A DNA stretch of 64,000 nt from Bacteroidia bacterium (GTDB taxonomy: Bacteria; Bacteroidota; Bacteroidia; SpSt-205), in the NCBI GenBank assembly GCA_026003235.1, contig BPGW01000002.1, positions 62,001-126,000 on the forward strand. Reading direction: 5' to 3'. A program made the translations under genes and the position numbers. Numbering within the stretch: position 1 is the first letter of the stretch; each line of letters opens with the position of its first letter. The notes beneath the pieces were generated by a model. It was not told the DNA's origin, did no database searches, and saw nothing but the letters and a program-made list of their open reading frames with translations. Below are positions 2,285 to 63,769 of the stretch, in pieces.

Positions 2285-2292
2285 CAAAAGTA
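2285..2292 (-). promoter_or_regulatory. -7 box TACTTTTG for the glycosyltransferase
   Basis: Matches the Bacteroidota -7 consensus TAnnTTTG and sits 3 bases before GTG 2281. Transcription would start at or just inside the start codon. Back to back with the box at 2332-2339. Confidence 0.7.
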
Positions 2293-2331
2293 CTACCCCC
2301 GCCAGGGAAGTTTTTGTTTGTTCTGAAGCTA

Positions 2332-2339
2332 TAACTTTG
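2332..2339 (+). promoter_or_regulatory. -7 box TAACTTTG for the FixH-like lipoprotein
   Basis: TAnnTTTG match, 7 bases before ATG 2347. A TTTG-containing T-rich tract at 2311-2320 could supply the -33 element, though spacing is shorter than usual. Confidence 0.7.
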
Positions 2340-2346
2340 TAGCGAT

Positions 2347-3177
2347 ATGAAGCCGGTAGCCCGGCTAACCCTGGTGGCGGCGCTCTTCCTGGCGCTGCCC
2401 ATCGCATGCAAGAAGGAAAAGAATGAGCCGCAGCCGAATTCTCCTATCCCTCCCATGCGGGTGGAAGTGGGGCACGAGCACACTCCTGCAGAAAGGCATG
2501 TATACTTGTACGCCGAGCGGAACCCCCTCTATGAGGGATACAACCGCCTCTGGCTGCAAATCAAGAATGCCAATGGCAGCCTTTATGCGGGGAGCGATGT
2601 GCGGATAGTCCCGCTAATGTTTATGATGAATCACACCCATTCGTGTCCGGTGGAGCAGGTGAGTGGGGGGCCGGATGAGCAAGGGTACTACACTGCCGCG
2701 GCCTTCTTCCAGATGCCCTCCAACGATCAAGAGCCCTGGAAAGTGCGGGTGTACATTGGAGGAACCGATTCGGTGGATATTCCTATTACGGTCAATCCCC
2801 ATCCCCAGGGCTTTGTACGCAGGAAAATGTTTGGGGGTATGCCTTTTTTGTATGAGCTTCGGCCAGCGCAGCTGGCTGTAGGGTCGCAAGATGTGACGCT
2901 GTATGTGTATCGGCGGGAGATGAGCCGGCCTATGACGGATCCGGCGGGCTTTCCTCCAGCCAATGACCGAGTGGCCAAAGTCGCTCTCAAGACCTGGATG
3001 CCCAGTATGGGGCATGGGGCGGAAGGCACCCAGGATGCCACCCCCTTGCCGGATATGCCTGGCCACTACCGCGGCAAACTGGGCTTCAACATGACAGGGG
3101 ACTGGGAGATCTACACGGCCTTCATAGGGACCGGAGGGGATACCCTGGGTATAGACACCTTTGCGGTTCGCTTTTAA
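2347..3177 (+). CDS. lipoprotein with two FixH/YtkA-like domains
   Basis: 276 residues with a lipoprotein signal (lipobox ending Cys21, then Lys-Lys-Glu-Lys). Two copies of a beta-sandwich domain resembling FixH/YtkA follow. The first has a Met/His-rich stretch (MFMMNHTHSC) and the second has MPSMGHG, then G-x-Y and the N-M-T-G-D-W strand typical of YtkA-like domains. The Met and His residues suggest copper binding, in keeping with the nearby SCO1 and cytochrome c genes. Function is inferred from fold and context only. A possible terminator follows. Confidence 0.72.
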   Translation: MKPVARLTLVAALFLALPIACKKEKNEPQPNSPIPPMRVEVGHEHTPAERHVYLYAERNPLYEGYNRLWLQIKNANGSLYAGSDVRIVPLMFMMNHTHSCPVEQVSGGPDEQGYYTAAAFFQMPSNDQEPWKVRVYIGGTDSVDIPITVNPHPQGFVRRKMFGGMPFLYELRPAQLAVGSQDVTLYVYRREMSRPMTDPAGFPPANDRVAKVALKTWMPSMGHGAEGTQDATPLPDMPGHYRGKLGFNMTGDWEIYTAFIGTGGDTLGIDTFAVRF

Positions 3178-3182
3178 GGGAA

Positions 3183-3219
3183 GGGGGGGCAGGTCTTATA
3201 GATCAGCCCCCCTCTCCTT
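3183..3219 (+). terminator. possible bidirectional terminator hairpin
   Basis: A GGGGGGC/GCCCCCC stem of about 7 bp (3184-3190 with 3206-3212) with a 15-base loop lies between two convergent genes. It is followed by a weak pyrimidine-rich tract rather than a clean T run. Confidence 0.45.
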
Positions 3220-3225
3220 GTTGTC

Positions 3226-6900: not shown

Positions 6901-7877
6901 TGGGCCGGCAAAGCCAGGATCACGCCCAGGATGTAGGTAGGGTCGGGGGCTTGTCGGTATCGTTCCAGCGCTTCCAGCAGGAGGAGCGTGCCTTTGTTTT
7001 CAAGTTCAGGCCTTCCGCCGTGCAGGAGCCAGAAGACGGGTTTCTGAAGGTTCCATTGGCGGGCCAGCTGCTGGAGCCAGCGGCGGGCTTTTTCTACAGG
7101 CAAGGACGGAGGGCAGTCCCACCCATTGGGGGTCAGCACATCGGCGGCGTGGCCCAGGTAATGCGCGGCCTCTCGGCTGGTAAGAGGGCTTACGGTGGTG
7201 GTAGCGTCGGCGTGCTGCCAGGCGGCTCGCTCAAGGGAATGTTTGCTTTGCAGGCCTTTTTCGTGTAGCCAGGCCGCCAGTCCTTCCAGGGGCAAAAGCT
7301 GACCGCTTGCGGCCCTCCCCGCTACCGTGGCATGGGTGGTAAAAAGCACCGTAATGCGGGGTGCCGCTTTGCGCAGATACAAGACCCCCGCACCCGTGAG
7401 CCACTCGTGGAAATGCGCCAAGGCCTCTACCTCTTCCCCATAATAGAAGTCGCAAAAGCTGGCTATCACTTCGCCCGCCGCATACCCGAAGAGGGCCGGT
7501 TCTATGTAGTCCCACCCTCCCCAGAGCGAGTCTACCCCGTAGTCTTCCCATAGCTGCGCAAAGAGGGTGTCTTTGCGGGCCACCAAGGGGTAAAAGTCCA
7601 CGAGCAGGGTCGTCAGCGCTTGCTCCCCTACCTGCCAGTAGCCGGCGTGGACGGTGTAGCCTTTTTCTTGCTGGAAGTACTCTCGCCATTCCTCAAAGAG
7701 CGGGGCCTGCTGCCAGCTTGTGCGCTCAGGCCCATAGGGCCCTATAAGAAGGTAAGAGCGGTCTTTTCGGGCCGCCAGGCAAGGGGCCTTCCCGACCAAG
7801 ACGGTGTGGATGCCTCCGATTTTATGGGCGACTTCCCAGCTTACCTCAAAGAGAACTCTGGGCCAGGAGGGGGACAC
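3894..7877 (-). CDS. fused glycogen synthase (GT3-type) and alpha-glucan phosphorylase (GT35)
   Basis: 1327-residue two-enzyme fusion. Residues about 1-505 resemble GT3 glycogen synthase: FEVSWEV then GGIHTVL near the N-terminus, and EPWGYTPQE followed by SGFG in the donor-binding half. Residues about 515-1215 are a short-type alpha-glucan phosphorylase with MEFGLA, GGLGVLAGD and the PLP-lysine motif SGTSGMK (Lys codon 4601-4599, residue 1093). A beta-sandwich tail of about 100 residues ends the protein. One chain could both build and degrade glycogen. The frame extends to GTG 7892, but a TACCTTTG promoter box lies inside that extension, so I use GTG 7877. Confidence 0.9.
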   Translation of the reverse strand: MSPSWPRVLFEVSWEVAHKIGGIHTVLVGKAPCLAARKDRSYLLIGPYGPERTSWQQAPLFEEWREYFQQEKGYTVHAGYWQVGEQALTTLLVDFYPLVARKDTLFAQLWEDYGVDSLWGGWDYIEPALFGYAAGEVIASFCDFYYGEEVEALAHFHEWLTGAGVLYLRKAAPRITVLFTTHATVAGRAASGQLLPLEGLAAWLHEKGLQSKHSLERAAWQHADATTTVSPLTSREAAHYLGHAADVLTPNGWDCPPSLPVEKARRWLQQLARQWNLQKPVFWLLHGGRPELENKGTLLLLEALERYRQAPDPTYILGVILALPAQTEKPAGFPTQPLWLSHTLRHPEADPLWQRLKALNLQPDEPIRVAYLPVYLEGNDGVVNLPYYALLGAVQASAFPSRYEPWGYTPQESLGLGVPTVSSRQSGFGQWMEAQGLPLGQALFLVDHEKPDPAGQLLSWLYQRLQDSPTERQKLRSQAQELAQSTRWTHFLPFYEQAYEVARTKARARLSYRKPPSKPSSAEAFVWHRAFFTPVLPEPLQPLRWLAYNLWWTWHPEVQALFAQIDPVSWEAHQNPVWLLNHLPSSTWQALSQDSAFLARLAEVYQRFKAYMEAPLRTDLPTVAYLCMEFGLARCLPFYAGGLGVLAGDYLKQASDAGYPLIGIGLLYRKGYFTQRLSPEGEQIAESPALRFTDLPLEPVRQSEERWLRLRVPLGSQTLYLKVWRLQVGRVPLYLLDADLPENPEPLRALTHRLYPAQAEERLQQEIVLGFGAQALVEALGLAVDLFHYNEGHAAFHALAHWAHWRKAGLSVQAALERVRAATLFTTHTPVPAGHDAFPPDLLRSYLETFVTQEIGLSWDSFWALGQMPPEEDRFSLSAFCVRIAACTNAVSRLHGQVSRHLFASLYPAYRPQEVPIQSITNGVHQATWQAPAWTPKPSSPAALWETHQTLKKQLLAYLQRRLLQAPWPLAYLKAAQAFFASTDENTLLLGFARRLATYKRHLLLLESEEFAQLLDEAPVRLMLAGKAHPHDEAGKAALKTLWDKLNQPPYRGKVLFLPDYDMELAYRLITGVDVWLNLPVYRQEASGTSGMKACLNGVLHLSLPDGWWAEVDPEEAGGWTVPPCPTQEPPLRDAWEAAQVTFLLRESVLPTYLDRDAQGLPLPWIRRMEKAQAYVAKHFSTARTLSDYITKGYQPLVQRLRRLTQDPEQFAQRQAFLQAVADHWPHLQVREVWVLPFTERSHPAGEPFTAGVEVDLGELPPAALRAELVLESANGQVYAFALTPEAPGRYTGQGHVPDPGVYHWAIRLYAWDPYLEERLWAWAKLL

Positions 7878-7881
7878 CCAG

Positions 7882-7889
7882 CAAAGGTA
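7882..7889 (-). promoter_or_regulatory. -7 box TACCTTTG for the glycogen fusion gene
   Basis: Perfect TAnnTTTG, exactly 4 bases before GTG 7877 and inside the longer frame that begins at 7892. It decides the start codon. Confidence 0.72.
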
Positions 7890-12263: not shown

Positions 12264-14501
12264 TTACGAACCGCCTCCGACGGCCAGGCGCCATACACGG
12301 CGAACCCCGCCCAGTTCGGTTTCCACCAGGTACAGGCCCCGGGCTAACGAACCCACGGAGAGGCTATGTCTGGCTTCGGGGCTGGTAATGGCAAAGCTGC
12401 CCTGTAAAACTTCCTGTCCAGCCAGCGTGAGAATGCGGTAGCGCAGCACCAGCCCTTCACCCTGCCGCACTACCAGAAAGACCTCTTCCTGCGCAGGATT
12501 AGGCCCTAAGGAGATGTCGGGCTTAGATAAGGCAGGCAGGGTAGAAGCGGTCACGCTGGCGTTTCGCACCTGTATGCTGTCCAGGTAGAGGTTATTCCCC
12601 ATCTCGGTGATGTTCTCAAAGCGAATGAGGATTTTCTGGCCTATGTAGCTGGCGGGGATGGGCACGACTTTATGGGACCAGGCGGTGTTAGGTCCTGTAG
12701 GGGGAACGGCCTGAGGGCCGTAGCTGCCAGTTTGAACGATAGCGGCCGTATCGGCCAGGTCTTCGCCCCCCTGGTAGAAGATGCGCTGCCAGGTGGCGCC
12801 GCAGTCCGAGGAGATGGACACAGCCAGCGTATCTGCGTAGAGGTAAGGTTGATTGTTATTTGCGGTGCTTTGCCAATCAATCGCCCGGTAGTAGACGTCA
12901 AACTCCAGGGTGGGGTTTGTAGCGTTGGAGGGGATCTGAATGAGGGGAGTGATGAGGTAGTCTCGCTGCGTACGGTTGAAGTAGGAGAAGTTTCGCAGGC
13001 GGGCCATGCCGTTGCTGGCGCCAAAGCTGCCCCGGTTGGCGGAGCTGTACCTTTCCCACTGCACAGAGCCTCCTACGGCAAAGTCCGGATTGATGCGTAC
13101 CCACCCAGCGGGAGGGAAGGCCGTTCCTTCAAACCCTTCCGAGAAAGGATAGGAGGCTACCTGGTTAGTGTCCCGCACCACCAAAAAGCCTGTGTAGGTG
13201 GTGTCGTGCGACCCTACCTGGTTTGTTACTTGCAAGCGTACGTTGTAGGTGCCTGGAGTAGAGGGCGCTGTCAGCGTAGCACACGGCCCTTGCGTAGAGG
13301 AGGTCAGGACTGTAGCACCCTGGCGGATTTCCCAGAGGAAGGCGTGCGGTTTACCCCAGCTGTAGCTGGTAAAGGAAAGGGCCTGGCCAGGGCACACGTA
13401 GCAAGGCGGCTGTTCGCAGCCATTGAGCGCAAAGTTCGCTTTGATACGGCCCCAGGGGCCTGCTCCCGTGGCCTGCAGATTGGTGGATTGCCACTGCTGG
13501 CGGTCAGAAGCGGTTTGCAGAGCGCTTTGCATGCGCACCCGCTGGCCCTCCGTAAAAACATCCAACGCTCCATCATCCAGGTAGTCCATATAGTCACGCA
13601 CCAGGTCAGGCACGTCGCCGCCGGTGGCTGAGGTCGTTTCGTAGCAGGTGTTTTGGCGCTTCGCGGTGCCATAGTTGGCCTGGCGGGTAGGAGGCGTATC
13701 GCACACGCGATCCCCTGCAGTGGCGCAGTTGCCGTTACTTGTACCATAGCAGCCGGGCATGGAAGGACTCGGGAAAGTGTGGAAAAGATTAAGATAATGC
13801 CCGGCTTCATGGGTCGTAGTCTGCCCCCCTCCGGAGTTGCCAAAAGCGCTGGAAATGACCGTTACCCCCTCGTTGTTATCGGAAGTGCCATCCGGGAAAG
13901 TAGCAAAGCCTAAAATCGGACACTGGTTGTCTGTGGGGTCTGTGCAGATTTGATTGACTACCCAGATATTGAGGTATTTGCTGCGATCCCAGCCGGTGTT
14001 GGCTTTCATAGTAGAAGCGCTATTAGGGCTGCCGCTCATATTGACGCGGGCGGCGGTAAGGCCAGCGTCGGTATAGCGGGTGTAGGTGATGCCCGGGTGG
14101 GGATTACCGCTGGGGTCTTTGGTGGCAAGGCTCAGCTCGATCCGGGTGTCCACCCCCGAGCTGTAGCCTTTGGTGTAGGGGCGCTTTCGGTAGTCGTTGA
14201 ATAGCTGCTCCATCTGCAGAAGCACCCGGCTCATGGGGAGGCTGTCCGGTTGCCCCCACCCAGAATGGATGATATGCACCACGACGGGCACCACGTAGTC
14301 GGACTCCGGACAGGAGTTCTGGGTGCGGAGCTGAGGGGCGTGTCTCTCTATCCACTGGGCTATGGCGGCTTCCAGCTGCTCCCGAACCTGGACAAGGGTA
14401 GGGTTGGTTTGTTCCTCCTTTTCGCGGTAGAGGTCTGTACCACAGGTCCAGGTCTGCGCCCACAGGGCACTTAAGGCCCCTAAAACGAGTAGGTTACGCA
14501 T
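12264..14501 (-). CDS. T9SS-exported M43 (pappalysin/cytophagalysin-like) metalloprotease
   Basis: 745 residues. A signal peptide (about 1-15) is followed by a propeptide and an M43 zinc protease domain with HEAGHYLNLFHTF (HExxHxxxxxH with a following Phe) and Cys pairs typical of the family. A PKD-like domain and a MAM/jelly-roll-like domain (FSEGFEG...GWVRIN) follow. The last 80 residues (ISLGPNPAQEEVFL... to WRLAVGG) form a type A T9SS sorting domain. It is expected to be secreted or surface-attached for protein degradation. ATG 14501 is chosen from the signal peptide and the promoter box 4 bases upstream. Confidence 0.92.
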   Translation of the reverse strand: MRNLLVLGALSALWAQTWTCGTDLYREKEEQTNPTLVQVREQLEAAIAQWIERHAPQLRTQNSCPESDYVVPVVVHIIHSGWGQPDSLPMSRVLLQMEQLFNDYRKRPYTKGYSSGVDTRIELSLATKDPSGNPHPGITYTRYTDAGLTAARVNMSGSPNSASTMKANTGWDRSKYLNIWVVNQICTDPTDNQCPILGFATFPDGTSDNNEGVTVISSAFGNSGGGQTTTHEAGHYLNLFHTFPSPSMPGCYGTSNGNCATAGDRVCDTPPTRQANYGTAKRQNTCYETTSATGGDVPDLVRDYMDYLDDGALDVFTEGQRVRMQSALQTASDRQQWQSTNLQATGAGPWGRIKANFALNGCEQPPCYVCPGQALSFTSYSWGKPHAFLWEIRQGATVLTSSTQGPCATLTAPSTPGTYNVRLQVTNQVGSHDTTYTGFLVVRDTNQVASYPFSEGFEGTAFPPAGWVRINPDFAVGGSVQWERYSSANRGSFGASNGMARLRNFSYFNRTQRDYLITPLIQIPSNATNPTLEFDVYYRAIDWQSTANNNQPYLYADTLAVSISSDCGATWQRIFYQGGEDLADTAAIVQTGSYGPQAVPPTGPNTAWSHKVVPIPASYIGQKILIRFENITEMGNNLYLDSIQVRNASVTASTLPALSKPDISLGPNPAQEEVFLVVRQGEGLVLRYRILTLAGQEVLQGSFAITSPEARHSLSVGSLARGLYLVETELGGVRRVWRLAVGGGS

Positions 14502-14505
14502 AAGA

Positions 14506-14513
14506 CAAAAATA
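14506..14513 (-). promoter_or_regulatory. -7 box TATTTTTG for the M43 protease
   Basis: Exact TAnnTTTG, 4 bases before ATG 14501. A TTG lies about 18 bases farther upstream as a possible -33 element. Confidence 0.72.
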
Positions 14514-14562: not shown

Positions 14563-14570
14563 TACTTTTG
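14563..14570 (+). promoter_or_regulatory. -7 box TACTTTTG for the histidine kinase
   Basis: Exact TAnnTTTG, 4 bases before GTG 14575. It supports the GTG start, since the overlapping ATG at 14573 runs straight into a stop. Confidence 0.72.
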
Positions 14571-14574
14571 AGAT

Positions 14575-16497
14575 GTGAAGTGGCGAGTAGTCAGTGTGGC
14601 TGGCGCACCTTGTCCGAGGGAAGGCGTAGACAAAATAGACAAGCTGCCTTCCCGGCCTGAAAAGCACACGATATACCTTTTGCCGGATGTGGGAAGCCGC
14701 CCGCGGAGGCCTTTCCCCTGTCTGTGTTATGACCCAGAGCGAGCGGTGGAGCGCCCAGATCGGTATTACACACCGCGGACGCTGACCCATGCCCAGCTCA
14801 TGCTGGCCTGGCGCACCTACCGGCTGCAAAAACTGCGAAGGCTTCGGTGGCGAAGCCGCCTCTTGGAGAAAGCCCCCTCTATTTACTATTTTGCTTTTGA
14901 CGAGGCAGAACGGCTGCTTGACTTCAACACGGCGTTGGGTCAGGCCGTCAGGGCGCTGGTGGGTCGGTCGCCTCGGCGTGGCCAACCCTTCTGGGACATC
15001 GTCCTGCCTGAAAACCAACCCTCCTTGCGGGAAGAGCTCCGCCTACTTAGGGAGGGGCGGGCGCTGCAGCTCCAGCGCCAAATAGGTCCCCGTCGGGCCG
15101 AAGTGTGCCTTATGCCTCTCCACAAAGGCGTGTATGGCTACTACGCCCTGGATATTACGGTCTACCACCAGCTGGCAGAACTGGCTATGCAGCAGCAGAG
15201 CTTGCAAGAAGAGATTTTAGGGCACCTGAATGAGGGGCTGGTGGTGTTGGATGCCCAGGGCAAGGTGCTGTATGTCAATCCCCGGGCTGAGCGCTTTCTG
15301 GGCCTGTCTGCCCTGGAGGCCCTGGGCCAACCGTATCCCTTCTCCACGCAAGGGAACCTCCTCGTAAAAGGGGGGCGCATACTTGAGACCACGTCTATCC
15401 CCCTTCCTCGCGCGGGCCAAACCATCGTTGTGCTGCGCGATATCTCAGCCCTCTGGCAAGCGGAGCGCTTCAATCGCCTCTATCAGGCGGTGGTCCAGGA
15501 GGGACCCTTGGGCGTCTTTATCTGGCAAGGAGAGGTAGAGGAGGCTCAGCTCATCTACGCCAACCCCTTGGCGCAGCGATGGCTGCCCGAGCAGGGCAGA
15601 ACCCTTTCAGAAACCCTGCTCCCCTACCTCCCCCAGGAGACAAAACGCCACTTCAAACAGCTACTGCAAGCCCGCATGCCTGTTGAGCTTATGCTGCGCG
15701 CTGCACGCAAACGGCTCGGCTGGAGTCACCTGGCTTGTACCCTTTTCCCCTTGCACATAGAGGAACTCGGGGAAAAGGTACCTTACTGGATCGCTATCCT
15801 TCAAGATCGCACCGAAGTGCAACGGCTTCTACGGCGGCAGGCGCAGCTGGAGCGCCAGCAAAGTCGCCTCATCGTGGAAGCCCAAGAAAAAGAAAGGCAG
15901 CGCCTGGCTGAAGAGCTCCACGACAGCGTAGGGGTGCTGCTGAGCGTGCTCAAAATGGAACTTTCCGTATTTTTTGAGGAGCTATCCCTCTCTCCGGAGC
16001 AGAAGGAGCGAGCCCGCCAACTCATCACTCGGATAGACGAAGTCACCCAAACCGTGCGGCTGGTAAGCCATCAACTCATGCCCCCTCTCTTGGAACACTT
16101 CGGGCTTGTGCCTTCGCTGGAAGGGCTAGTCCGCCAGCTGACTCGTATTTCTTCCCTCCACATCACCCTTCGCGTAGAAGGCAAGCCCGTTGAATTACCG
16201 CTTCTGAAGGTGCTGCATGTGTATCGGATCATTCAGGAGCTGCTCAACAACACCCTACGGCATGCGAAGGCCCGGTCTGTTTCGGTGGTGTTGCGCTATC
16301 AGGCCCGCGCTTTGGTGATAGAGGTGAGCGACGATGGAGAAGGGTATGCACCGGCCGCCCTTCGGGGTGGGGGCATCGGCCTGCGCAATGTGGTGGGACG
16401 GATTCGGGTGTTGGGAGGCCGGTGGGAAAATTTCTCCGCCCCCGGCCAAGGAGCGCACTATCGGATAGAGATCCCCCTCACCGGTAAAAAGTCTTAA
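14575..16497 (+). CDS. cytosolic multi-PAS sensor histidine kinase (NarL/HisKA_3 type)
   Basis: 640 residues without membrane spans. Three PAS-like segments (about 105-185, 220-310 and 315-420) lead into a HisKA_3 dimerisation helix with the phospho-acceptor His449 in EELHDSVG. A HATPase domain follows with N-box ELLNN, DDGEGY and GGGIGLRNVVGR. It should autophosphorylate in response to an internal cue and pass phosphate to the LuxR-type regulator starting 10 bases downstream. GTG start; the -7 box lies 4 bases before it. Confidence 0.9.
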   Translation: MKWRVVSVAGAPCPREGVDKIDKLPSRPEKHTIYLLPDVGSRPRRPFPCLCYDPERAVERPDRYYTPRTLTHAQLMLAWRTYRLQKLRRLRWRSRLLEKAPSIYYFAFDEAERLLDFNTALGQAVRALVGRSPRRGQPFWDIVLPENQPSLREELRLLREGRALQLQRQIGPRRAEVCLMPLHKGVYGYYALDITVYHQLAELAMQQQSLQEEILGHLNEGLVVLDAQGKVLYVNPRAERFLGLSALEALGQPYPFSTQGNLLVKGGRILETTSIPLPRAGQTIVVLRDISALWQAERFNRLYQAVVQEGPLGVFIWQGEVEEAQLIYANPLAQRWLPEQGRTLSETLLPYLPQETKRHFKQLLQARMPVELMLRAARKRLGWSHLACTLFPLHIEELGEKVPYWIAILQDRTEVQRLLRRQAQLERQQSRLIVEAQEKERQRLAEELHDSVGVLLSVLKMELSVFFEELSLSPEQKERARQLITRIDEVTQTVRLVSHQLMPPLLEHFGLVPSLEGLVRQLTRISSLHITLRVEGKPVELPLLKVLHVYRIIQELLNNTLRHAKARSVSVVLRYQARALVIEVSDDGEGYAPAALRGGGIGLRNVVGRIRVLGGRWENFSAPGQGAHYRIEIPLTGKKS

Positions 16498-16502
16498 TTT
16501 TG
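16495..16502 (+). promoter_or_regulatory. -7 box TAATTTTG for the response regulator
   Basis: Exact TAnnTTTG spanning the kinase stop codon and lying 4 bases before ATG 16507, so the regulator may also be transcribed separately. Confidence 0.65.
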
Positions 16503-16506
16503 CCTC

Positions 16507-19020: not shown

Positions 19021-19024
19021 TGGG

Positions 19025-26202: not shown

Positions 26203-26206
26203 CCGG

Positions 26207-38341: not shown

Positions 38342-38345
38342 GGGC

Positions 38346-49423: not shown

Positions 49424-49431
49424 TATCTTTG
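49424..49431 (+). promoter_or_regulatory. -7 box TATCTTTG for the STAS gene
   Basis: Exact TAnnTTTG, 4 bases before ATG 49436, between the phosphatase stop and the STAS start. Confidence 0.72.
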
Positions 49432-49435
49432 CTAT

Positions 49436-52101: not shown

Positions 52102-53690
52102 CGGTAATCCTGCGGCGGTAGGAAGTTTTCTTTTATCGCCCGAGGGCTTACCCAGCGGATGAGGTTCCAAGGGGAGCCGGCTTTGTCGTTGGTGCCAGAG
52201 GCGCGGGCACCCCCAAAGGGCTGCTGGTCTACCACCGCCCCAGTCGGCTTGTCATTGATGTAGAGGTTGCCGGCGGCGTAGCGCAGCGCCGAAAGCGCCT
52301 GAGCAATCACCGCGCGATCTTGGGCCCAGATGGCCCCCGTCAAACCGTAAGGTGAGGTTTGATCCACCAGGCGCAAGCTCTCTTCCCACTTCTCATCAGG
52401 GTAGATGTACACCGTCAGGACGGGGCCAAAAATCTCCTCTTGCATCAAGCGGTGGTGAGGGTCCTTCGTCAAAAAGAGCGTAGGCTCAATGAAGTACCCT
52501 TCCGAATCGTCATACCCGCCGCCCGCCAGTAGGGTAATAGCCGGGTCGTTTTTCCCCAGCTCTATGTAGGAGACGATTTTGTCAAAGGATTTCTTGTCTA
52601 TGACGGCCGTGATGAAGTTTTGGAAGTCCTCTGGGGGTCCCATCCGAAAGTCCTTCATCATCCCTATGAGCCGGCTTAGGATGTCATCAGCCAGCGAAGC
52701 GGGTAGGTAAGCTCGGGAGGCGGCCGAGCATTTTTGCCCCTGGTATTCGTAGGCGCCGCGGGCTAAGGCTACCGCTACCCCTTGCGGGTCGGCGCTGGCG
52801 TGAACCCATACAAAGTCTTTGCCGCCGGTTTCGGCTACGATGCGAGGGTAGTTGCGATAGCGGCTTAGATGGGCCCCGATTTGTTCCCAGAGGCGATTCA
52901 GGGTGGCGGTGGAACCCGTAAAGTGCAACCCGGCCAAGGCTGGATGACGCAAGGCCACTTCGCCCACCAGAGGGCCAGGAGCGATCACCATATTCAGGAC
53001 GCCGGGGGGAAGGCCGGCTTCCAAAAGCACTTCCAGGATCACCTGAGCGGAATAGACCTGCGTTTCAGCCGGCTTCCAGACTACGGTGTTGCCCATGAGG
53101 GCGGGGGCCGTGGGTAGATTGCCCGCTATGGAAGCGAAGTTGAAGGGTGTAATGGCCAGCACAAACCCCTCCAGCGGGCGGTAATCCAGGACGTTCCGAG
53201 TAAGGGGAGGGCTGGTGGGCTGCCAGCTTTGTAACCACTCCGCATAATGCACATTGAAGCGCCAGAAGTCAGCCAGTTCCGCAATGATGTCAATTTCGGC
53301 CTGGAAGATGGTTTTGGACTGGCCGATCATGCAGGCGGCGTTGGCGCGAGCCCGGTACTTGTGGGTAAGCAAGTCAGCGGCTTTGAGAAAGATTTCGGCC
53401 CGGCGCTCAAAAGGCCAGGCGCTCCACTCCTTGTGCGCTTGGAGGGCGGCATCTATGGCGGCTTGGACCTGATCGGCCCCCACTTTGTAGGCCGTGCCTA
53501 TCTTTTGATTCTTGCGGTGAGGTGGCGAAAGCCAAAACGGCTCACCCTCCACGAAGCGCCCTCCAATGTAGCTGCGCACCTCAATAGGGTTCTGGTAGGC
53601 TGCCTCCAAGGCTTTCTTCAGGGCTATCCGTTCGGGGGAGCCTGGCGCGTACGACAAAACCGGTTCGTTTGCAGGGCGAGGGAAGCGCAT
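52074..53690 (-). CDS. pruA: L-glutamate gamma-semialdehyde (P5C) dehydrogenase
   Basis: 538 residues, the single-domain P5C dehydrogenase of proline catabolism, giving glutamate. Catalytic Cys is in GQKCSAASRAYLP, catalytic Glu in VAETGGKDF, and the Asn region in ITPFNFASIAGNLP. No proline dehydrogenase gene is adjacent. Start ATG 53690, 4 bases after a near-consensus box. Confidence 0.94.
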   Translation of the reverse strand: MRFPRPANEPVLSYAPGSPERIALKKALEAAYQNPIEVRSYIGGRFVEGEPFWLSPPHRKNQKIGTAYKVGADQVQAAIDAALQAHKEWSAWPFERRAEIFLKAADLLTHKYRARANAACMIGQSKTIFQAEIDIIAELADFWRFNVHYAEWLQSWQPTSPPLTRNVLDYRPLEGFVLAITPFNFASIAGNLPTAPALMGNTVVWKPAETQVYSAQVILEVLLEAGLPPGVLNMVIAPGPLVGEVALRHPALAGLHFTGSTATLNRLWEQIGAHLSRYRNYPRIVAETGGKDFVWVHASADPQGVAVALARGAYEYQGQKCSAASRAYLPASLADDILSRLIGMMKDFRMGPPEDFQNFITAVIDKKSFDKIVSYIELGKNDPAITLLAGGGYDDSEGYFIEPTLFLTKDPHHRLMQEEIFGPVLTVYIYPDEKWEESLRLVDQTSPYGLTGAIWAQDRAVIAQALSALRYAAGNLYINDKPTGAVVDQQPFGGARASGTNDKAGSPWNLIRWVSPRAIKENFLPPQDYRYPFMAPDR

Positions 53691-53694
53691 GCCT

Positions 53695-53702
53695 CAAAGT
53701 TG
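53695..53702 (-). promoter_or_regulatory. -7 box CAACTTTG for pruA
   Basis: One mismatch (C for T at position 1) to TAnnTTTG, 4 bases before ATG 53690. Confidence 0.55.
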
Positions 53703-56118: not shown

Positions 56119-56126
56119 TACTTTTG
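56119..56126 (+). promoter_or_regulatory. -7 box TACTTTTG for the 56134 gene
   Basis: Exact TAnnTTTG lying entirely between the divergent priA and 56134 starts, 7 bases before ATG 56134. Confidence 0.7.
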
Positions 56127-56133
56127 CGCTTGT

Positions 56134-57447
56134 ATGACAAAGCTATGGCTTTTGCTGGGGAGCTTGTGGGCGCAATCGGCTTTGCCTTTGACTCGCCTGG
56201 TTTGGTACAGCGACGGGCGGGTCTACTGGGTGCGTGAGGCTTTGGTTCCGGCTCTGCGAGGCGAGGTCACGGTCAAAGTGCCCGGACCCAAGCCCTCTAC
56301 TTTCCTCTTGCCCCAGCCTGAATACCGCCTAAAAGCTTGGACCCTCCAGCCCGACACTTTACAGATGCCCAGCGCGTCGCTCCCAGAAAGCTTAGATGAG
56401 CTTTTAGAGCAGAGTGTGGGTTCGTCGGTGGAGGTGAGCTATCTGGCGGGTTCGGAGTGGGAGGGGCTGAGCGGGCTTCTGGAGAGGGTCACGGCTACGG
56501 ACCTTTTCCTGCGTAAAGCCACAGGGGAAGAGGTGGTGCTGCCGAGGGCGGCGGTGCGATCGGTGCGCCGTTCGCCTGGGCCATACCAAAGGGTTTTTCC
56601 TGCGTGGCGGCTTTCAGCCCGATTGGACACCGCTTTGCCGCTGGTGCGCGTGGCGGTGGCCGGCTGGGATACCCTGGCTCCTTGGCGCGCTGCCCACCTC
56701 CTCCAACTCATCACCCCTACCCGTGCCTTGCTCCATACCACCTTGGAACTGCCCCCTTCTCCGTTGGCAGGCGCTGCCGTGGAACTGTTTCTCGTATACC
56801 AGCCTGCAGAAGGGGGGGGAGCTCACACCTGGCACCTGCCTTTGCAAAAGATTAGCCCTTCGTCTACTCGTCTGGCCTTTCTTCAAGCCGAGCTGTCGTA
56901 TTCGGAGCTGTACCGAGCCTCGTTGCCCGACTTGGTTGAGAGCCTGGAGCCTTTTCAGCTTAGCTCGGCCAGAGCCCAGGCGGAGCGTTCCCTCCAGCTT
57001 TTGAATACGCAGAAGGTGACCTTGCCCCCCGGATCGGTGCAAATTCTGGATGCGGAGGGGCTTCCTGTGGCTCGGAGTGTGCTGCCTCTCACGCCGCCGG
57101 GGGCTACGGGCTACCTTCCCTTGGCTCCAGACCCGGCTATCCAGCTTCGCTTGCAGGAAGCGGAGGTGCGCCGGGAAAAGGACCGTTCCAGCTCGGCTGC
57201 TTTTCGTGTGACCGTGCAGGGTACGCTGTCGGTGCAAAATGGCACTACACGAGAGGTGCGCTTGCGGATAGAAAAGCCTCTCACTGGCCAGCCTATTAAG
57301 GACAAGATAGGCTTCGTTCAGGTGGTGCCGCTACCCGAACGGCGCGCCACCAACCCTCGCCAGCTCCTACAGTGGGAGCTGCTGCTGCGGCCGGGCGCTA
57401 CCGAAAACTTGGAATATGCGTACGAGCTTACCTTGCCGCCGAAGTAG
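56134..57447 (+). CDS. exported DUF4139-like protein
   Basis: 437 residues with a short signal peptide (cleavage near WAQS). A beta-rich protein whose last 150 residues resemble the DUF4139 beta domain (YRVTVQGTLSVQNGTTREVRLRIEKPLTG..., ending WELLLRPGATENLEYAYELTLPP). The middle region carries a small barrel-like stretch (LLERVTATDLFLRKATGEEVVLPRAAVRSV). Function unknown; possibly envelope-associated. The frame extends upstream through priA but the promoter and signal peptide fix ATG 56134. Overlaps the next gene's 3' end by 20 bases. Confidence 0.7.
   Translation: MTKLWLLLGSLWAQSALPLTRLVWYSDGRVYWVREALVPALRGEVTVKVPGPKPSTFLLPQPEYRLKAWTLQPDTLQMPSASLPESLDELLEQSVGSSVEVSYLAGSEWEGLSGLLERVTATDLFLRKATGEEVVLPRAAVRSVRRSPGPYQRVFPAWRLSARLDTALPLVRVAVAGWDTLAPWRAAHLLQLITPTRALLHTTLELPPSPLAGAAVELFLVYQPAEGGGAHTWHLPLQKISPSSTRLAFLQAELSYSELYRASLPDLVESLEPFQLSSARAQAERSLQLLNTQKVTLPPGSVQILDAEGLPVARSVLPLTPPGATGYLPLAPDPAIQLRLQEAEVRREKDRSSSAAFRVTVQGTLSVQNGTTREVRLRIEKPLTGQPIKDKIGFVQVVPLPERRATNPRQLLQWELLLRPGATENLEYAYELTLPPK
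56138..56145 (-). promoter_or_regulatory. -7 box TAGCTTTG for priA
   Basis: Exact TAnnTTTG inside the first codons of the divergent gene, 19 bases before ATG 56118, so the two transcripts would overlap. Confidence 0.5.
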
Positions 57448-58075
57448 GTCCTGGCCGGCGTTTCTCTTCTGGTAGCGTCCCAAATACCCAGTCCCACAGC
57501 GGCGAAGAGACCCCAAAGGCCCGATCAGGCGACTTGAAGTGGTGCAGGTGATGGTGGCGCCACAGCTTTTTCAGCCAAGGGGTAGGAGGATTCTTGACCC
57601 GGTGCATCAAATAGTGCGTCGTGGAGTAGAGCAAGTACCCTACAATGAAGCCTGCCAGAAAGGGAATCCCATACCGCCCCAAGGCCAGATAAAAGAGCCC
57701 TCCAAACAGACTGGCTAAAATCAAGCTGGGCACCGGCGGCATGAAGAGGTGGTGCGGATCGCTGGGGTACTCATGGTGCACCCCATGTACCAGATAGTGA
57801 AACCGCTGAACCCACGGCCGCTCGTCCACCCAGTGAAACACAAACCGATGCAGGAGGTATTCAGCCAGGGTCCAGACAAAAAGCGCTACGGCGAAGGTGG
57901 CGAGGGTCGCTCCGACGGTTAGCCCCAGCCGCGCCACGCTGTAGTACAAAAGCCCGCTCACGATGGGGATGTACATGCCCCAGATGACATAGGGGGAGGA
58001 GAGGGTCAGCAGCTCCAGCAGAGGGTTTTGGAATAGGCGAGCTCGTCCGTGTACCTTCGGTCGGATGGGCTGCAT
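57428..58075 (-). CDS. fatty acid hydroxylase/sterol desaturase-family membrane protein
   Basis: 215 residues with about four spans. The di-iron His motifs of the superfamily are present: HRFVFH, HGVHHEYP, HYLMH and HHHLHH. It resembles fatty acid 2-hydroxylases, which modify sphingolipid or glycerolipid acyl chains; the real substrate is unknown. ATG 58075 is preceded by a -7 box 4 bases upstream. Confidence 0.88.
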   Translation of the reverse strand: MQPIRPKVHGRARLFQNPLLELLTLSSPYVIWGMYIPIVSGLLYYSVARLGLTVGATLATFAVALFVWTLAEYLLHRFVFHWVDERPWVQRFHYLVHGVHHEYPSDPHHLFMPPVPSLILASLFGGLFYLALGRYGIPFLAGFIVGYLLYSTTHYLMHRVKNPPTPWLKKLWRHHHLHHFKSPDRAFGVSSPLWDWVFGTLPEEKRRPGPTSAAR

Positions 58076-58079
58076 GCCG

Positions 58080-58087
58080 CAAAAATA
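58080..58087 (-). promoter_or_regulatory. -7 box TATTTTTG for the fatty acid hydroxylase
   Basis: Exact TAnnTTTG, 4 bases before ATG 58075, between the gene and the initiator tRNA. Confidence 0.72.
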
Positions 58088-58132
58088 CAGATTAGCCTGC
58101 CTTTTGCTGGGACAATGCGCAAGACCGCAGTG

Positions 58133-58204
<72 letters not shown>

Positions 58205-58249
58205 ATGGCGCCTACAAAGGTACGACTTTCTGGAAAAAGTCAAGGGCTG

Positions 58250-58750: not shown

Positions 58751-58758
58751 CAACTTTG
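58751..58758 (+). promoter_or_regulatory. -7 box CAACTTTG for the glycosyltransferase
   Basis: One mismatch at position 1, 4 bases before ATG 58763. With the opposing box at 58727-58734 it shares a 39-base intergenic gap. Confidence 0.55.
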
Positions 58759-58762
58759 CTCC

Positions 58763-59875
58763 ATGGGGCCAATTTGGGTTCTCTCCGTACATCCTTACCC
58801 CTACGCTCCTAACCTCCGCTTCCGTCTGATGCAGTATGAGCGGTTTCTTGCCGGGCAGGGGTACCTTCTCCAGTGGCGGGCCTTCCTTTCTCGGCGGTCT
58901 TACAAGAGGCTCTACTGGGAAGCCCACGCTTCTCCCTGGTATCGGGTTGGCCCTTCGGCGGTGGGACTGCTGCGCCAGACGCTGCTGGCGCTCCAAGCCC
59001 GAACCCACCTCCTCCCCGCCCAAGGCTTGGTTGTCCTGAGAGAAGCGACGCCCCTGGGCTGTACTGCGGTAGAAAGACTCTGGGCCGCCCGCGTGCCCCT
59101 CCTCTTGGACTTTGATGATGCCATTTGGCTGCCTGCCACCTCCGAGGCTAACCGAGCCTTCGCCTGGCTCAAAAACCCTAAAAAACTCCACACTTTGCTC
59201 CGCCTAGCTAAGGTTGTCACCGTCTGTAATGACTTTTTGGCAGACTACGCCCGCCAGTACGCTACCGATGTGCGCATCCTCCCCACCACCATAGACACCG
59301 AGCTGTATCGCCCTCGCCCTAAGCCCCCTTCGGATACCGTGGTGATTGGCTGGAGCGGCAGCCTCACCACCCTCGCCCACTTCCGCATAGTGGAGCCCGC
59401 CTTGGCGATCCTGCGCAAGCGGTACGGCGCCCGCCTGCGCTTTCGGGTTATTGGCGCACCGCACTACCAAAACCCCGACCTGGGCATAGAGAGCCTGCCT
59501 TGGCGCCCAGAGACCGAAGTAGCCGACCTCTCCATTATAGATATTGGCCTTATGCCGCTCCCCGATGACGAGTGGAGCCGAGGCAAATGCGCCCTCAAAG
59601 CCCTCCAGTACATGGCCCTGGGGATCCCCCCCGTCGTGTCTCCTGTGGGGATGAACAGCCAAGTGGTCCAAGAGGGAGTCAACGGCCTTTTGGCCCGTAC
59701 CCTGGAGGAATGGGTGGACAAGCTGTCCTACCTCATAGAACACCCCGAGGAGCGGGAACGGCTCGGCCGGCAAGCCCGCTACACCGTAGAAACCCACTAC
59801 GCCGTCCAGGCTAACGCTCCCAAATACCTCGCCGCCTTCCAAGCCGCCTTCGGAATCCCAACCTTTGGCAGCTAA
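58763..59875 (+). CDS. glycosyltransferase (GT4-like)
   Basis: 370 residues, GT-B fold. The N-terminal half has LSVHPYPYAPNLRFR and a DFDDAIW segment; the C-terminal half has VIGWSGS, then MPLPDDEWSRGKCALKALQYMALGIPPVVSPVG, the donor-binding region of GT4-type enzymes. Probably acts in surface polysaccharide or lipid glycosylation. ATG 58763 follows the promoter box; the longer frame from 58745 crosses it. Unrelated in sequence to the enzyme at 1037. Confidence 0.85.
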   Translation: MGPIWVLSVHPYPYAPNLRFRLMQYERFLAGQGYLLQWRAFLSRRSYKRLYWEAHASPWYRVGPSAVGLLRQTLLALQARTHLLPAQGLVVLREATPLGCTAVERLWAARVPLLLDFDDAIWLPATSEANRAFAWLKNPKKLHTLLRLAKVVTVCNDFLADYARQYATDVRILPTTIDTELYRPRPKPPSDTVVIGWSGSLTTLAHFRIVEPALAILRKRYGARLRFRVIGAPHYQNPDLGIESLPWRPETEVADLSIIDIGLMPLPDDEWSRGKCALKALQYMALGIPPVVSPVGMNSQVVQEGVNGLLARTLEEWVDKLSYLIEHPEERERLGRQARYTVETHYAVQANAPKYLAAFQAAFGIPTFGS

Positions 59876-60870: not shown

Positions 60871-60893
60871 AAGCCGCTCAAGGGATTGAGGGC

Positions 60894-60930
60894 AGCTGGG
60901 GTGGCCTTGGTCACCCCAGCTTTATTTTTT
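60894..60930 (+). terminator. intrinsic terminator between convergent genes
   Basis: A 10-bp stem AGCTGGGGTG/CACCCCAGCT (60894-60903 with 60912-60921), 8-base loop and a T-rich tract to 60930, ending the lipoprotein transcript. It overlaps the end of the convergent kinase gene. Confidence 0.85.
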
Positions 60931-63714
60931 AGGGCTTTTGGGCAGGCGGACCCGGAAGGCGGTGTAGCCTGGTTCGCTATGCAGGAGCTCCAGGCGGCCG
61001 CCGTAGCTTTCCACGATTTGGCGGCAGAGAGGCAGGCCCAGGCCTGTGCCTTCCCCGGGCGCCTTCGTCGTGAAGAGCGGCTCAAAAATCGCTTGGCGCA
61101 GCGGCGCAGGAATACCCTTGCCGGTGTCTTCCATGCGCACGTGGACTTCGGTGGGGGTATCCTCGATCCAGACCCGCAGCTGGCCGCCGTCGGGCATCGC
61201 CTGAAGGGCATTTTGAATCAAGTTGGCCCAGACCTGCTCAAGACGAGCTGGGCTGGCTTCTACGTAGACCGGATGGGGCGGCGCCGAGAGATGCACCTGC
61301 ACCCCCCGCATCAGGGGCTGGTAAAAGGCCAGCGTGGCGCGCACACTCTCTGACAGGTTCACAAGCTGGGTGGGCTCCTCTTGCATGCCTCGCACGTACG
61401 TGCGGATGGCCTGCACCCGCTCATGGAGCTTTTGAGCCGCTTCATGGGCACGGTATAGGGCCTGGTGCAGGGCCACGGTGCGACGGAGATTTTCCCAGGT
61501 GAGGGGATCGGCCAGCCAAGGCGCCAGCTTTGCATGCTGGTCTGGGGTGTAGCCCAGGGAGGCAAGCTGCTGAAGAAGGAGAGGGGGCAGCTCCGGATGG
61601 GCCGCTTGCCAGGCATGGCGCAGCTCACGCAGCCGGGCAGGGGCAGGTCGCGGCTCGCTCGGCAAGGGAAGGTCCTTCGCCTGCTGCGCAAGTTCGTTCT
61701 GCGCCTCTTGCAGGCTGCTCTGGATCACGCCGAGAGGGGTGTTGATCTCATGGGCGATGTGGGCGGCCATCAGGCCGAGGTTGGCCATGCGTTCGGCGCG
61801 CAGGAGCTGGGTTTGCTGGGCTTGCGTTTGCTTCAGGAGGGCTTCTCTTTCTGCGGTTAGCTTGCGCTGGAGCCGTCGCAGGTTCCACTCCCGCAGGAAG
61901 GCAATACCCGCCACGATGCCCACCAGCCCTACAATCAGGAGGGCTCGTGCGAACCAGGTCTGGTACCAGGGGGGTATGACTTCTACGGTCCACTCCAGGG
62001 GGGTAGCCTTGGGGTAAGCGGGGTGCTCCACCCATAGGCGGAGGGTTACGGTGCCGGGCTGGCTGAGCGCCAGGAGCAGCTTGGGCTGGTCCAGCGGCTG
62101 AGGGGGATCGGCGCCGATCTGGTACCTGACCCGGAGGAGGCCAGGCAGGAAAAGCGCGTCGGCTTCCCAAGCCAGTTCTATATAGGGCCGTTCGGCAGGC
62201 AGCTCAAAGCGTCGTGGGGCCACAGGCTTGAGGGCGGGCCCTTGGAGCGTAGCCCGCAGGGTGAGCGGAGGTAAGCGCCCAGCCTTGAGGTAAGCCAAGT
62301 GTCCCAGCGAGGTCAGAAGGTGGAGGGTATCGCCCTGGGAGAAAGCTACGAGGGGACGCCCCCACCCGAAAGGCAGCGGGAGCGGAGGACCCATCCAAGG
62401 CGCCCAAGTAAGGGTATCCTGCACCTGGCCGTTTTTCCATACCAGCCAGCGGCTTCCAAGCCGTAGGTACCACGCTTCCCGCCAGAATTGGGCCTCTTCG
62501 GGCCGGAAAGCAAGCCGGATAGGTTGCCAGCGCTCTTTTTCGTAAAGATAGAGATAATCGCCGCTCCAGGCCCAGAGCCGTGATCCTTGCCAGGCCAGGC
62601 GTCGGATAGGGGTTCGGAAGTGGAATCGAGCTTCCCGGCCGCTGTGGCGGAGGGTGAGCTGGGTTCCGCTGCTCCAGGCCAGGTGCGTGCCGGTAGCGGC
62701 TACGGCGTGGATGTACCTGCCAGGTTCGGCCAAGGGGGTGCCGTCGCTGCGCAGCAGACCTGCGGGAGTAGCCCAGACCCACTGGCCCTGGTAGAGGGCC
62801 GCTTCAAGCAGTGTAGCGGGGTATCGGCGCAGCCCCTGGGGGGTTAGGGCCGTCTCGCCCTGCCAGAGAACCCATTGGCCTTCTTGGAAGGTGCCCTGGG
62901 TCATGGGCAGGGGCCAGCGGCGCACCCACCGGTAAGGGGCTTCAAGGTAAAGGAGGTGGCATGCTGCTGCGGTAATTACCGCCAGAAGGGCATGCTGGGC
63001 TGAGAAGGCGGCGCTGTAGATAGGCGTAGCGCTTGTCCAGAGGGGCGAGGCTTCTGGCCAGCGCAAAATCGCCTTTTCGCTTAGGAGGTAAGGTCCGCAG
63101 ACCCAGCGAGCCCCCACCGCAAGCGGGGACCCTCCGGGCAGGGGGAGGGCTTGTCCGGCTTCGGTGAGGCCCCAGAGCTGGTCTCTGACTGGGAAGGCCT
63201 CCAGCCATCGGCGTGCGGGCAAGCGCAGGAGGGGCTTTTCGCCTGGCCAGGCATAGAGGGTATCCCCCTTCCGTAGGAGAAGCTTTGGGGGGAAGGTGCC
63301 CATCCATTCTCCGGCGATGCGGGTTAGCTGTAAGGAGTCACCTTGCCAGCGCAGCCAATAAGAGCCCTGCACGGTGCGGATAGCTATGCCGTCGGGGCCT
63401 TGCCAGAGGCGGTCAACCCAGCCGGCCCCCGCTAAGGGGATTCGTCGGGTGCCCTGTGGAGTGTGCCAATAGAGAACGTTCAGACCTCCCAGGAGGAGGG
63501 TGTCCGCTCCAGCGGCGAGGCCGGCTCTGACTTCTTCTGGAAAGGCGGCTTTTTCTTGCCAGGTGCCTTTTTCCAGCCGCCAGAGCCGCCGCCCCTCCAC
63601 CACATAGAGGGCCGGCTTCGGGTCCAGAATCGGGAAAGCCTGGCTGCTCCACCGGCCCGCAGGCGCAGCCCAGCTATCCCAGACAGGCCACAAAACCGCC
63701 AGCCAACCCAGCAT
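60922..63714 (-). CDS. sensor histidine kinase with beta-propeller-like sensor
   Basis: 930 residues. An N-terminal signal or anchor, then about 500 residues of Trp-rich beta-propeller-like repeats, then a Y_Y_Y-like beta domain (near residue 530-595). One membrane span (about 600-620) and a coiled coil follow, then a HisKA domain with [14 protein letters not shown] roughly 100-residue Pro/Leu-rich insertion separates the two HisKA helices. HATPase domain: [15 protein letters not shown] and [18 protein letters not shown]. It should sense a periplasmic ligand; no response regulator is adjacent. ATG 63714 lies 4 bases after a -7 box. Confidence 0.88.
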
Positions 63715-63718
63715 AGAC

Positions 63719-63726
63719 CAAAGGTA
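63719..63726 (-). promoter_or_regulatory. -7 box TACCTTTG for the beta-propeller kinase
   Basis: Exact TAnnTTTG, 4 bases before ATG 63714. Confidence 0.72.
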
Positions 63727-63761
63727 GAAGGACTGCGTGGGCTTATTAGCAGAAAAAGCCC

Positions 63762-63769
63762 TATCTTTG
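63762..63769 (+). promoter_or_regulatory. -7 box TATCTTTG for the HMA-like gene
   Basis: Exact TAnnTTTG, 4 bases before ATG 63774; divergent from the kinase box 36 bases away. Confidence 0.72.

What the first reader, a model, noticed from the sequence alone, without database searches (positions are those of the whole stretch)
2285..63769. Genome-wide leaderless layout: TAnnTTTG, four bases, then ATG or GTG
About 25 genes on both strands have a TAnnTTTG (or one-mismatch) box just before the start codon. In 15 cases the gap is exactly 4 bases (starts 7877, 14501, 14575, 16507, 19025, 26202, 27791, 30639, 38346, 49436, 53690, 58075, 58763, 63714, 63774); most others are 2-10. In Bacteroidota this box is centred near -7, so transcription should start at or within a base or two of the start codon. 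Such consistent spacing in one phylum member suggests leaderless mRNA is the default, and it appears before kinases, enzymes and lipoproteins alike.
Basis: partly seen in the sequence, partly recalled or inferred. Interest (0 to 1): 0.75.

Follow-up and report, generated by a model that had tools for sequence, protein, structure and literature searches.

The report
Bacterial family with mostly leaderless genes
In this Bacteroidota lineage the standard promoter box sits four bases before the start codon of a large share of genes, so their messages probably begin at the start codon without a leader, unlike the members of the phylum whose messages have been mapped.

Summary
All 15 named starts have the box exactly 4 bases upstream (13 exact, 2 with one mismatch). 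Genome-wide, TANNTTTG-N4-ATG occurs 190 times against 2 for the pattern read backwards. In a 464-kb sample, gaps 0-8 have counts 0,0,0,6,63,17,9,10,4; shuffles give at most 2 at gap 4. All 12 family genomes searched show it; PEPCK keeps the box in 12 of 12. The box acts as a promoter, not a ribosome signal: it precedes 47 of 108 divergent genes but 5 of 116 overlapping downstream genes, and tRNA genes too. In Flavobacterium johnsoniae transcription starts 4-5 nt after this box (PMC6847099, passages), so gap 4 means an mRNA starting at the start codon. Mapped Bacteroidota have about 3.7% (5'UTR under 10 nt) or 5.5% (leaderless) such mRNAs, so leaderless as the main mode is a new variant of a known mechanism. 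Limits: no RNA data; 42 of 108 divergent genes have no exact box within 200 nt. Other Bacteroidia families show weaker or mixed versions.

The parts
7877..7889 (-). box TACCTTTG (7882-7889), 4 bases, GTG start at 7877; glycogen synthase/phosphorylase-like protein
14501..14513 (-). box TATTTTTG, 4 bases, ATG at 14501; M43-type metallopeptidase with PKD domain
14563..14577 (+). box TACTTTTG, 4 bases, GTG at 14575; PAS histidine kinase
16495..16509 (+). box TAATTTTG, 4 bases, ATG at 16507; response regulator. The TAA of the box is the stop codon of the kinase ORF 14575-16497
19013..19027 (+). box TACCTTTG, 4 bases, GTG at 19025; no Pfam match
26202..26214 (-). box TACCTTTG, 4 bases, GTG at 26202; proton-antiporter/NADH-quinone oxidoreductase-like membrane protein
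27791..27803 (-). box TACCTTTG, 4 bases, ATG at 27791; short ORF 27522-27791 with a YHS match just under Pfam's cut-off, not called by my gene finder
30639..30651 (-). box TACCTTTG, 4 bases, ATG at 30639; pterin-4a-carbinolamine dehydratase, whose profile match begins at residue 4
38334..38348 (+). box TAGCTTTG, 4 bases, ATG at 38346; PEP carboxykinase; box kept in 12 of 12 family genomes searched
49424..49438 (+). box TATCTTTG, 4 bases, ATG at 49436; STAS-domain protein
53690..53702 (-). one-mismatch box CAACTTTG, 4 bases, ATG at 53690; aldehyde dehydrogenase
58075..58087 (-). box TATTTTTG, 4 bases, ATG at 58075; fatty acid hydroxylase
58751..58765 (+). one-mismatch box CAACTTTG, 4 bases, ATG at 58763; glycosyltransferase-like (matches below NCBIfam cut-offs)
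63714..63726 (-). box TACCTTTG, 4 bases, ATG at 63714; histidine kinase
63762..63776 (+). box TATCTTTG, 4 bases, ATG at 63774; ORF runs off the window, no Pfam match in the part seen
2332..2349 (+). box TAACTTTG, 7 bases, ATG at 2347
31237..31254 (+). box TAACTTTG, 7 bases, ATG at 31252; match to a T9SS sorting domain below its cut-off
56119..56136 (+). box TACTTTTG, 7 bases, ATG at 56134
58132..58222 (-). tRNA-Met (58132-58204) with box TACCTTTG at 58215-58222, 10 bases upstream: the same box before a gene that is not translated

Best explanation
TAnnTTTG is the -7 element of the Bacteroidota housekeeping sigma factor. In this family (class Bacteroidia, unnamed here) the promoter has been moved up against the coding region, so that RNA polymerase, which starts 4-5 nt after the box, starts on the A or G of ATG/GTG (gap 4) or within a few bases of it (gaps 3-8). 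These mRNAs are leaderless or carry a leader of at most about 4 nt. Ribosomes, probably as 70S or as 30S already loaded with initiator tRNA, would bind the 5'-terminal start codon directly. Operon-internal genes have no Shine-Dalgarno signal and mostly no box, and are probably reached by translational coupling. Shown: box, spacing, its conservation, its preference for transcription-start contexts, absence of Shine-Dalgarno excess. Inferred: the transcript 5' end, the ribosome route, the coupling.
For: Sharp one-sided peak: gaps 0-2 have 0, gap 3 has 6, gap 4 has 63, then 17, 9, 10, 4; shuffled maximum at gap 4 is 2. A start codon nearer than the transcription start would be lost, which fits the hard lower edge. 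190 against 2 genome-wide; 12 of 12 family genomes have 133-223 against 2-23. PEPCK: box in 12 of 12, gap 4 in 10, gap 5 in 2. 127 orthologue pairs: box at gaps 3-8 in both 26, in one only 17, in neither 84; box-derived starts coincide in 22 of 26. Promoter, not ribosome signal: divergent genes 47/108 and 151/266 against overlapping same-strand genes 5/116 and 11/247; tRNA genes 5/6 and 21/29 have it within 80 nt. Second exact boxes in the 200 nt above the first are no more common than the genome average: 1 of 47 and 6 of 151 divergent box genes, about 2 and 12 expected. 401 aligned boxes show AT at -20 to -18 and G at -13. No Shine-Dalgarno excess in own internal genes (14 of 170, 8%, same after shuffling). 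Comparator G238 of the same class has its boxes mostly at gaps 17-30 and 3 of 76 divergent genes at 3-8. F. johnsoniae promoters have 4 or 5 nt between box and transcription start (PMC6847099, passages). Four-base overlaps are possible in 60 of 301 tandem pairs here against 7 of 203 in G238, in keeping with coupling.
Against: No RNA 5' ends. 42 of 108 own and 86 of 266 G303 divergent genes have no exact box within 200 nt, and 19 and 29 have their nearest one at other distances. Same-strand genes 0-25 nt from an upstream gene also carry it often (26 of 86 own, 43 of 208 G303), so operon limits are unclear. Gene starts come from my own simple caller with several candidate starts per gene. In 17 of 43 orthologue pairs with any box only one partner has it. 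S1 has no box in 1 of the 4 loci looked at. The box-to-start distance was measured in another organism of the phylum.
Confidence: 0.87

Rival explanations
1. The box is an RNA-level translation signal in a longer leader (a Kozak-like or S1-binding element just before the start codon).
For: It sits at a fixed distance from the start codon; Bacteroidota lack Shine-Dalgarno sequences and initiation there is tuned by mRNA structure and by bases near the start codon (PMC6847099 abstract and passages; PMC3155529 passages).
Against: Rare before overlapping downstream genes (5/116, 11/247), which also need translation; present before tRNA genes (5/6, 21/29); same sequence and flanks as the reported -7 box; in comparator G238 the same box lies mostly 17-30 nt upstream.
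Confidence: 0.04
2. Mixed mode: the gap-4 promoter is real, but another promoter further up makes leadered mRNA for most of these genes, so leaderless mRNA is a minor product.
For: 61 of 108 own divergent genes lack an exact box at 3-8; promoters of other sigma factors are not covered by this motif.
Against: Box genes rarely have a second exact box in the next 200 nt: 5 of 105 own, 15 of 295 G303, about the genome average. PEPCK upstream sequence beyond the box looks diverged by eye in 12 genomes.
Confidence: 0.08
3. Chance or base-composition artefact, or start codons picked to fit the box.
For: Start codons were taken from several candidates of a simple caller.
Against: 190 against 2 needs no gene calls; shuffles give at most 2 at gap 4 against 63; reversed motif 0 at gap 4 in own; box-derived starts coincide between orthologues in 22 of 26.
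Confidence: 0.01

Closest known systems
Leaderless (TA-led) genes of Deinococcus-Thermus and Actinobacteria, Zheng et al. 2011, PMC3160421 (passages)
   Same: Promoter element about 10-12 nt before the start codon; share of genes of the same order (exact box at gaps 3-8: 105 of 409 own, 295 of 984 G303; the paper gives 39.4% and 19.2%, by another method)
   Different: There the element is a Pribnow-type TANNNT; here TAnnTTTG. That survey found leaderless genes in 1 of 37 Bacteroidetes/Chlorobi genomes (2.4%), and says it sees only Pribnow-like promoters
Housekeeping sigma (sigma-ABfr type) promoters of Bacteroides and Flavobacterium (PMC6847099, PMC7366714, PMC9723704; passages)
   Same: -7 box TAnnTTTG, G rare at the two free positions, AT-rich stretch near -18, no visible -33 element (as in F. 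johnsoniae)
   Different: There most promoters make a leader (modal 23 nt in B. thetaiotaomicron; 87% over 10 nt in F. johnsoniae); about 3.7% of 5'UTRs under 10 nt in B. thetaiotaomicron, 5.5% leaderless in F. psychrophilum
Shine-Dalgarno-less leadered initiation of Bacteroidota (PMC3155529, PMC6847099, PMC10783764; passages)
   Same: No Shine-Dalgarno excess, anti-SD CCUCC kept in G303, bS21 and an S1-like protein present
   Different: Own genes without a box show no A enrichment before the start: A 0.05-0.30 at -14 to -1, sample mean 0.205, against 0.19-0.72 in comparator G238; G238 is also far richer in A+T, so part of this is composition

Membership tests
Bacteroidota housekeeping promoter | -7 element TAnnTTTG | tested here: met
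Bacteroidota housekeeping promoter | -33 element TTTG | tested here: not met
   no information at -36 to -30 in 401 aligned boxes; described as much less evident in F. johnsoniae too, so it is not treated as defining
Bacteroidota housekeeping promoter | AT-rich stretch near -18, G rare in the two free positions | tested here: met
   A+T 0.69 at -18; G 0.09 and 0.05
Bacteroidota housekeeping promoter | recognised by a sigma-ABfr-type sigma factor | not tested
   sigma gene not examined
Leaderless genes | promoter element placed so that transcription starts on the start codon | tested here: met
   gap-4 peak with the 4-5 nt distance of PMC6847099
Leaderless genes | mRNA 5' end at the start codon | not testable with these tools
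   needs 5'-end sequencing
Leaderless genes | no Shine-Dalgarno sequence before the gene | tested here: met
   0 of 105 box genes, 2% after shuffling; weak test, since the box itself fills much of the stretch examined
Leaderless genes | found at first genes of transcripts | tested here: inconclusive
   47/108 divergent, 5/116 overlapping, but 26/86 at 0-25 nt from an upstream gene; the last may be internal promoters
A-rich SD-less leadered initiation (Bacteroidota type) | A-rich, low-GC leader before the start codon | tested here: not met
   own genes without box: no A enrichment (0.05-0.30, sample mean 0.205); GC at -14 to -1 averages about 0.52 (divergent) and 0.56 (tandem) against 0.59 in the sample, a small drop; G303 tandem genes A 0.15-0.34, sample mean 0.229, a slight excess

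The most novel reading that the evidence does not exclude
A whole Bacteroidota family has made 5'-terminal start-codon recognition its main way into translation: leaders were lost, promoters abut the start codon, and sometimes the upstream gene's stop codon supplies the TA of the box (stop, promoter and start packed into about 15 bases). Weaker forms of the same shift in several other Bacteroidia families suggest that the change from leadered to leaderless happened more than once in a phylum without Shine-Dalgarno signals.
Probability: 0.6. Interest if true: 0.72.

Novelty: new variant of a known kind. Interest (0 to 1): 0.62.

Why it matters
Bacteroidota are a standard case of translation without Shine-Dalgarno sequences. 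The mapped members whose papers I saw are described as leadered with few leaderless mRNAs. A family in which leaderless mRNA is the main mode, with the anti-SD (seen in one genome), bS21 and an S1-like protein kept, is a natural experiment: which ribosome features, if any, change when leaders go? It also gives a direct rule for correcting gene starts in these genomes (box plus 4 bases).

Tried and rejected
Chance: rejected by the reversed pattern, permuted motifs and shuffles. In one search twelve permuted motifs gave at most 2 at gap 4; one of them, AT..TTGT, gave 5 at gap 3, but it can overlap the box shifted by one base. RNA-level translation signal: rejected by overlapping genes and tRNA genes. 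High G+C as sole cause: own sample 59%, G303 54%, but family f85 (G340, 356 against 75) has 34% GC in an 83-kb sample, where 4 of 20 divergent genes have the box at 3-8 and 12 farther off; so G+C alone does not explain the excess. Loss of the anti-SD: the 16S 3' end of G303, the one genome where it was found, keeps CCUCC. Loss of bS21 or S1: bS21 in 11 of 12; a near full-length S1-like match in 11 of 12, all below the curated cut-off. A -33 element: not seen. A first orthologue attempt with another part of G303 gave 34 pairs of median identity 35%, 2 of them with a box in both, and was replaced (then 42). Thermophily: IVYWREL index 0.44 (own) and 0.42 (G303) suggests a heat-loving lineage (the index is recalled), but base composition may bias it.
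Full report
OBSERVATION. The window is G000:C2:62001-126000 of a 2.06-Mb, 11-contig, 82% complete genome, 59-61% GC. The window has 33 exact boxes, 16.9 expected. 17 of 33 are 3-8 bases before a candidate start of a called gene, 11 of them at gap 4.

GENOME-WIDE TEST. TANNTTTGNNNNATG occurs 190 times in the genome, the pattern read backwards twice; at gap 23 there are 19, against 3 for its backwards control. I took 400 kb of contig 1 and the window (464 kb), called 412 genes with a dicodon script, and counted box-to-start gaps over ATG/GTG candidate starts within 150 nt of the scored start. Counts for gaps 0-8 are 0,0,0,6,63,17,9,10,4; 200 dinucleotide shuffles of the 1498 upstream regions gave a mean of 0.34 and a maximum of 2 at gap 4. 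At gap 4 there are 48 ATG, 15 GTG, no TTG. Twelve permuted motifs gave at most 2 at gap 4. The missing gaps 0-2 and the tail on the far side are what a start site fixed 4-5 nt after the box would give, since a nearer start codon would not be in the transcript.

FAMILY AND ORTHOLOGUES. In the 12 family genomes the counts are 133-223 against 2-23 for the reversed pattern. PEP carboxykinase is found in all 12, one of them (G304) in two pieces; each of the 12 starts has TAnnTTTG before its ATG, 10 at gap 4 and 2 at gap 5, while the roughly 50 bases further upstream show no evident conservation by eye. Between the own sample and 1.2 Mb of G303, 127 orthologue pairs of at least 50% identity were found (159 best pairs before that cut); 26 have a box at gaps 3-8 in both, 9 in own only, 8 in G303 only, 84 in neither; about 9 in both would be expected if independent. 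The box-derived start falls on the aligned residue in 22 of 26. bS21 has the box at gaps 5-7 in 4 of 4 loci looked at (of 11 found), S1 at gap 7 in 3 of 4 (of 11 found).

PROMOTER, NOT RIBOSOME SIGNAL. Divergent genes, which need their own promoter, have an exact box at gaps 3-8 in 47 of 108 (own) and 151 of 266 (G303). Same-strand genes that overlap the upstream gene have it in 5 of 116 and 11 of 247. With one mismatch allowed, divergent genes reach 69 of 108 and 205 of 266, against 8-21 and 33-57 in five control gap windows. Same-strand genes 0-25 nt behind another gene have it in 26 of 86 and 43 of 208, which I read as internal promoters. tRNA genes have an exact box within 80 nt in 5 of 6 and 21 of 29 cases, at gaps 4-23; in the window this is tRNA-Met at 58132-58204 with a box 10 bases upstream. 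In 401 aligned boxes there is an AT-rich stretch at -20 to -18, G at -13, and nothing at -33, close to the report for F. johnsoniae (PMC6847099, passages). In that paper probable promoters have 4 or 5 nt between box and transcription start. Second exact boxes in the 200 nt above the first are at about the genome average: 5 of 105 own and 15 of 295 G303 box genes.

HOW MUCH OF THE GENOME. By exact box at gaps 3-8, 105 of 409 own genes and 295 of 984 G303 genes have the layout (sums over the classes; genes without a neighbour on the stretch were left out). Of divergent genes with any exact box within 200 nt, 47 of 66 and 151 of 180 are in this range. 42 of 108 and 86 of 266 divergent genes show no exact box within 200 nt: degenerate boxes, other sigma factors, wrong starts or missed genes. 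So leaderless looks like the default for recognisable housekeeping promoters, not for every gene.

REST OF THE TRANSLATION SYSTEM. No Shine-Dalgarno excess: own internal genes without box 14 of 170 (8%), 8% after shuffling; G303 35 of 390 (9%), 7% after shuffling. No A enrichment before own genes without box (A 0.05-0.30, sample mean 0.205), unlike comparator G238 (0.19-0.72, but a 39.5% GC genome). The 3' end of 16S in G303 keeps CCUCC (the gene is masked further in). bS21 is found in 11 of 12 genomes; an S1-like protein in 11 of 12, best matches 481-510 bits, below the curated cut-off of 577. Tandem gene pairs with a possible 4-base overlap are 60 of 301 (own), 134 of 718 (G303), 16 of 219 (G115), 7 of 203 (G238), in keeping with coupling of downstream genes. 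In 6 of 46 (own) and 9 of 89 (G303) boxes near an upstream stop codon, the stop codon is itself the TAA/TAG of the box; this offset is the commonest in both. A stop codon supplies the TA for free, so this was not shown to exceed chance. The window has one: the kinase stop at 16495-16497 begins the response-regulator box.

COMPARISON WITHIN THE PHYLUM. In a 296-genome phylum draw the own genome has the largest gap-4 to gap-23 ratio by my reading of the two tables (190/19; next G115 80/11) (not computed by script). Gap histograms: G238 has its boxes mostly at 17-30 and 3 of 76 divergent genes at 3-8; G115 14 of 102; G041 4 of 34. In a 395-genome class draw, family f85 also has high counts (G340 356 against 75; G373 269 against 77; G402 288 against 89); per megabase G340 is about as high as the own genome. 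83 kb of G340, 34% GC, shows a gap-4 peak of 6, with 4 of 20 divergent genes at 3-8 and 12 of 20 farther off: a mixed layout. The other family of the order, one genome of 77% completeness (G307), shows little (50 against 39). So the own family is the clearest case among those examined at gene level, and weaker or mixed versions exist.

LITERATURE. Passages read: B. thetaiotaomicron about 3.7% of 5'UTRs under 10 nt, modal 23 nt (PMC7366714); F. psychrophilum 5.5% leaderless (PMC9723704); F. johnsoniae 87% of predicted leaders over 10 nt (PMC6847099); Zheng et al., 1 of 37 Bacteroidetes/Chlorobi genomes with leaderless genes, 2.4%, with a note that only Pribnow-like promoters are seen (PMC3160421); FCB group described as having AT-rich non-canonical RBSs (PMC9581028); GC drop of 12.6% before starts in Bacteroidetes (PMC3155529); SD-scarce Bacteroidota with conserved CCUCC (PMC10783764). 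Against full novelty, the last paper's conclusion mentions previously reported leaderless mRNA in some Flavobacteriia that lack CCUCC; I did not see the source. Paper searches listed no paper whose title or abstract start reports a Bacteroidota with leaderless mRNA as the main mode; two searches listed only 15 of 413 and 12 of 60 papers, and most subscription papers are not in the library. The GeneMarkS-2 paper was not held.

VERDICT. Observation confirmed; interpretation well supported by sequence, not yet by RNA. A new variant of a known kind: leaderless-dominated expression, built on the Bacteroidota -7 box, in a phylum whose mapped members are leadered.

Noticed in passing
window 16495-16497; 15 of 135 near-stop boxes in own and G303 samples: The stop codon TAA/TAG of the upstream gene doubles as the first bases of the -7 box of the next gene; the commonest box-to-stop offset in both genomes. 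Not tested against the free TA that a stop codon supplies.
   Followed up: partly
family f85 (G340, G373, G402) and, more weakly, members of f67, f77, f92, f104, f110: Other Bacteroidia families also have a clear excess of TAnnTTTG-N4-ATG over the reversed pattern, suggesting repeated moves towards leaderless promoters; only G340 was looked at in detail.
   Followed up: partly
own and G303 samples: Amino acid composition (IVYWREL 0.44 and 0.42, few Lys, Asn, Cys) suggests a thermophilic lineage (index recalled).
   Followed up: no
operon-internal genes, own and G303: A at the base after the start codon (+4) is 0.39-0.40 in tandem genes without a box but 0.18-0.21 in box genes; the two classes may use different initiation contexts.
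   Followed up: no
window 3894-7877 (-): One 1327-aa protein matches glycogen synthase in its N-terminal part and DUF3417 and glycogen phosphorylase further on: a possible synthase-phosphorylase fusion.
   Followed up: no
L140 8032-8142 and 9224-9335 (G303): Two 5S rRNA matches about 1.1 kb apart downstream of one 23S gene.
   Followed up: no
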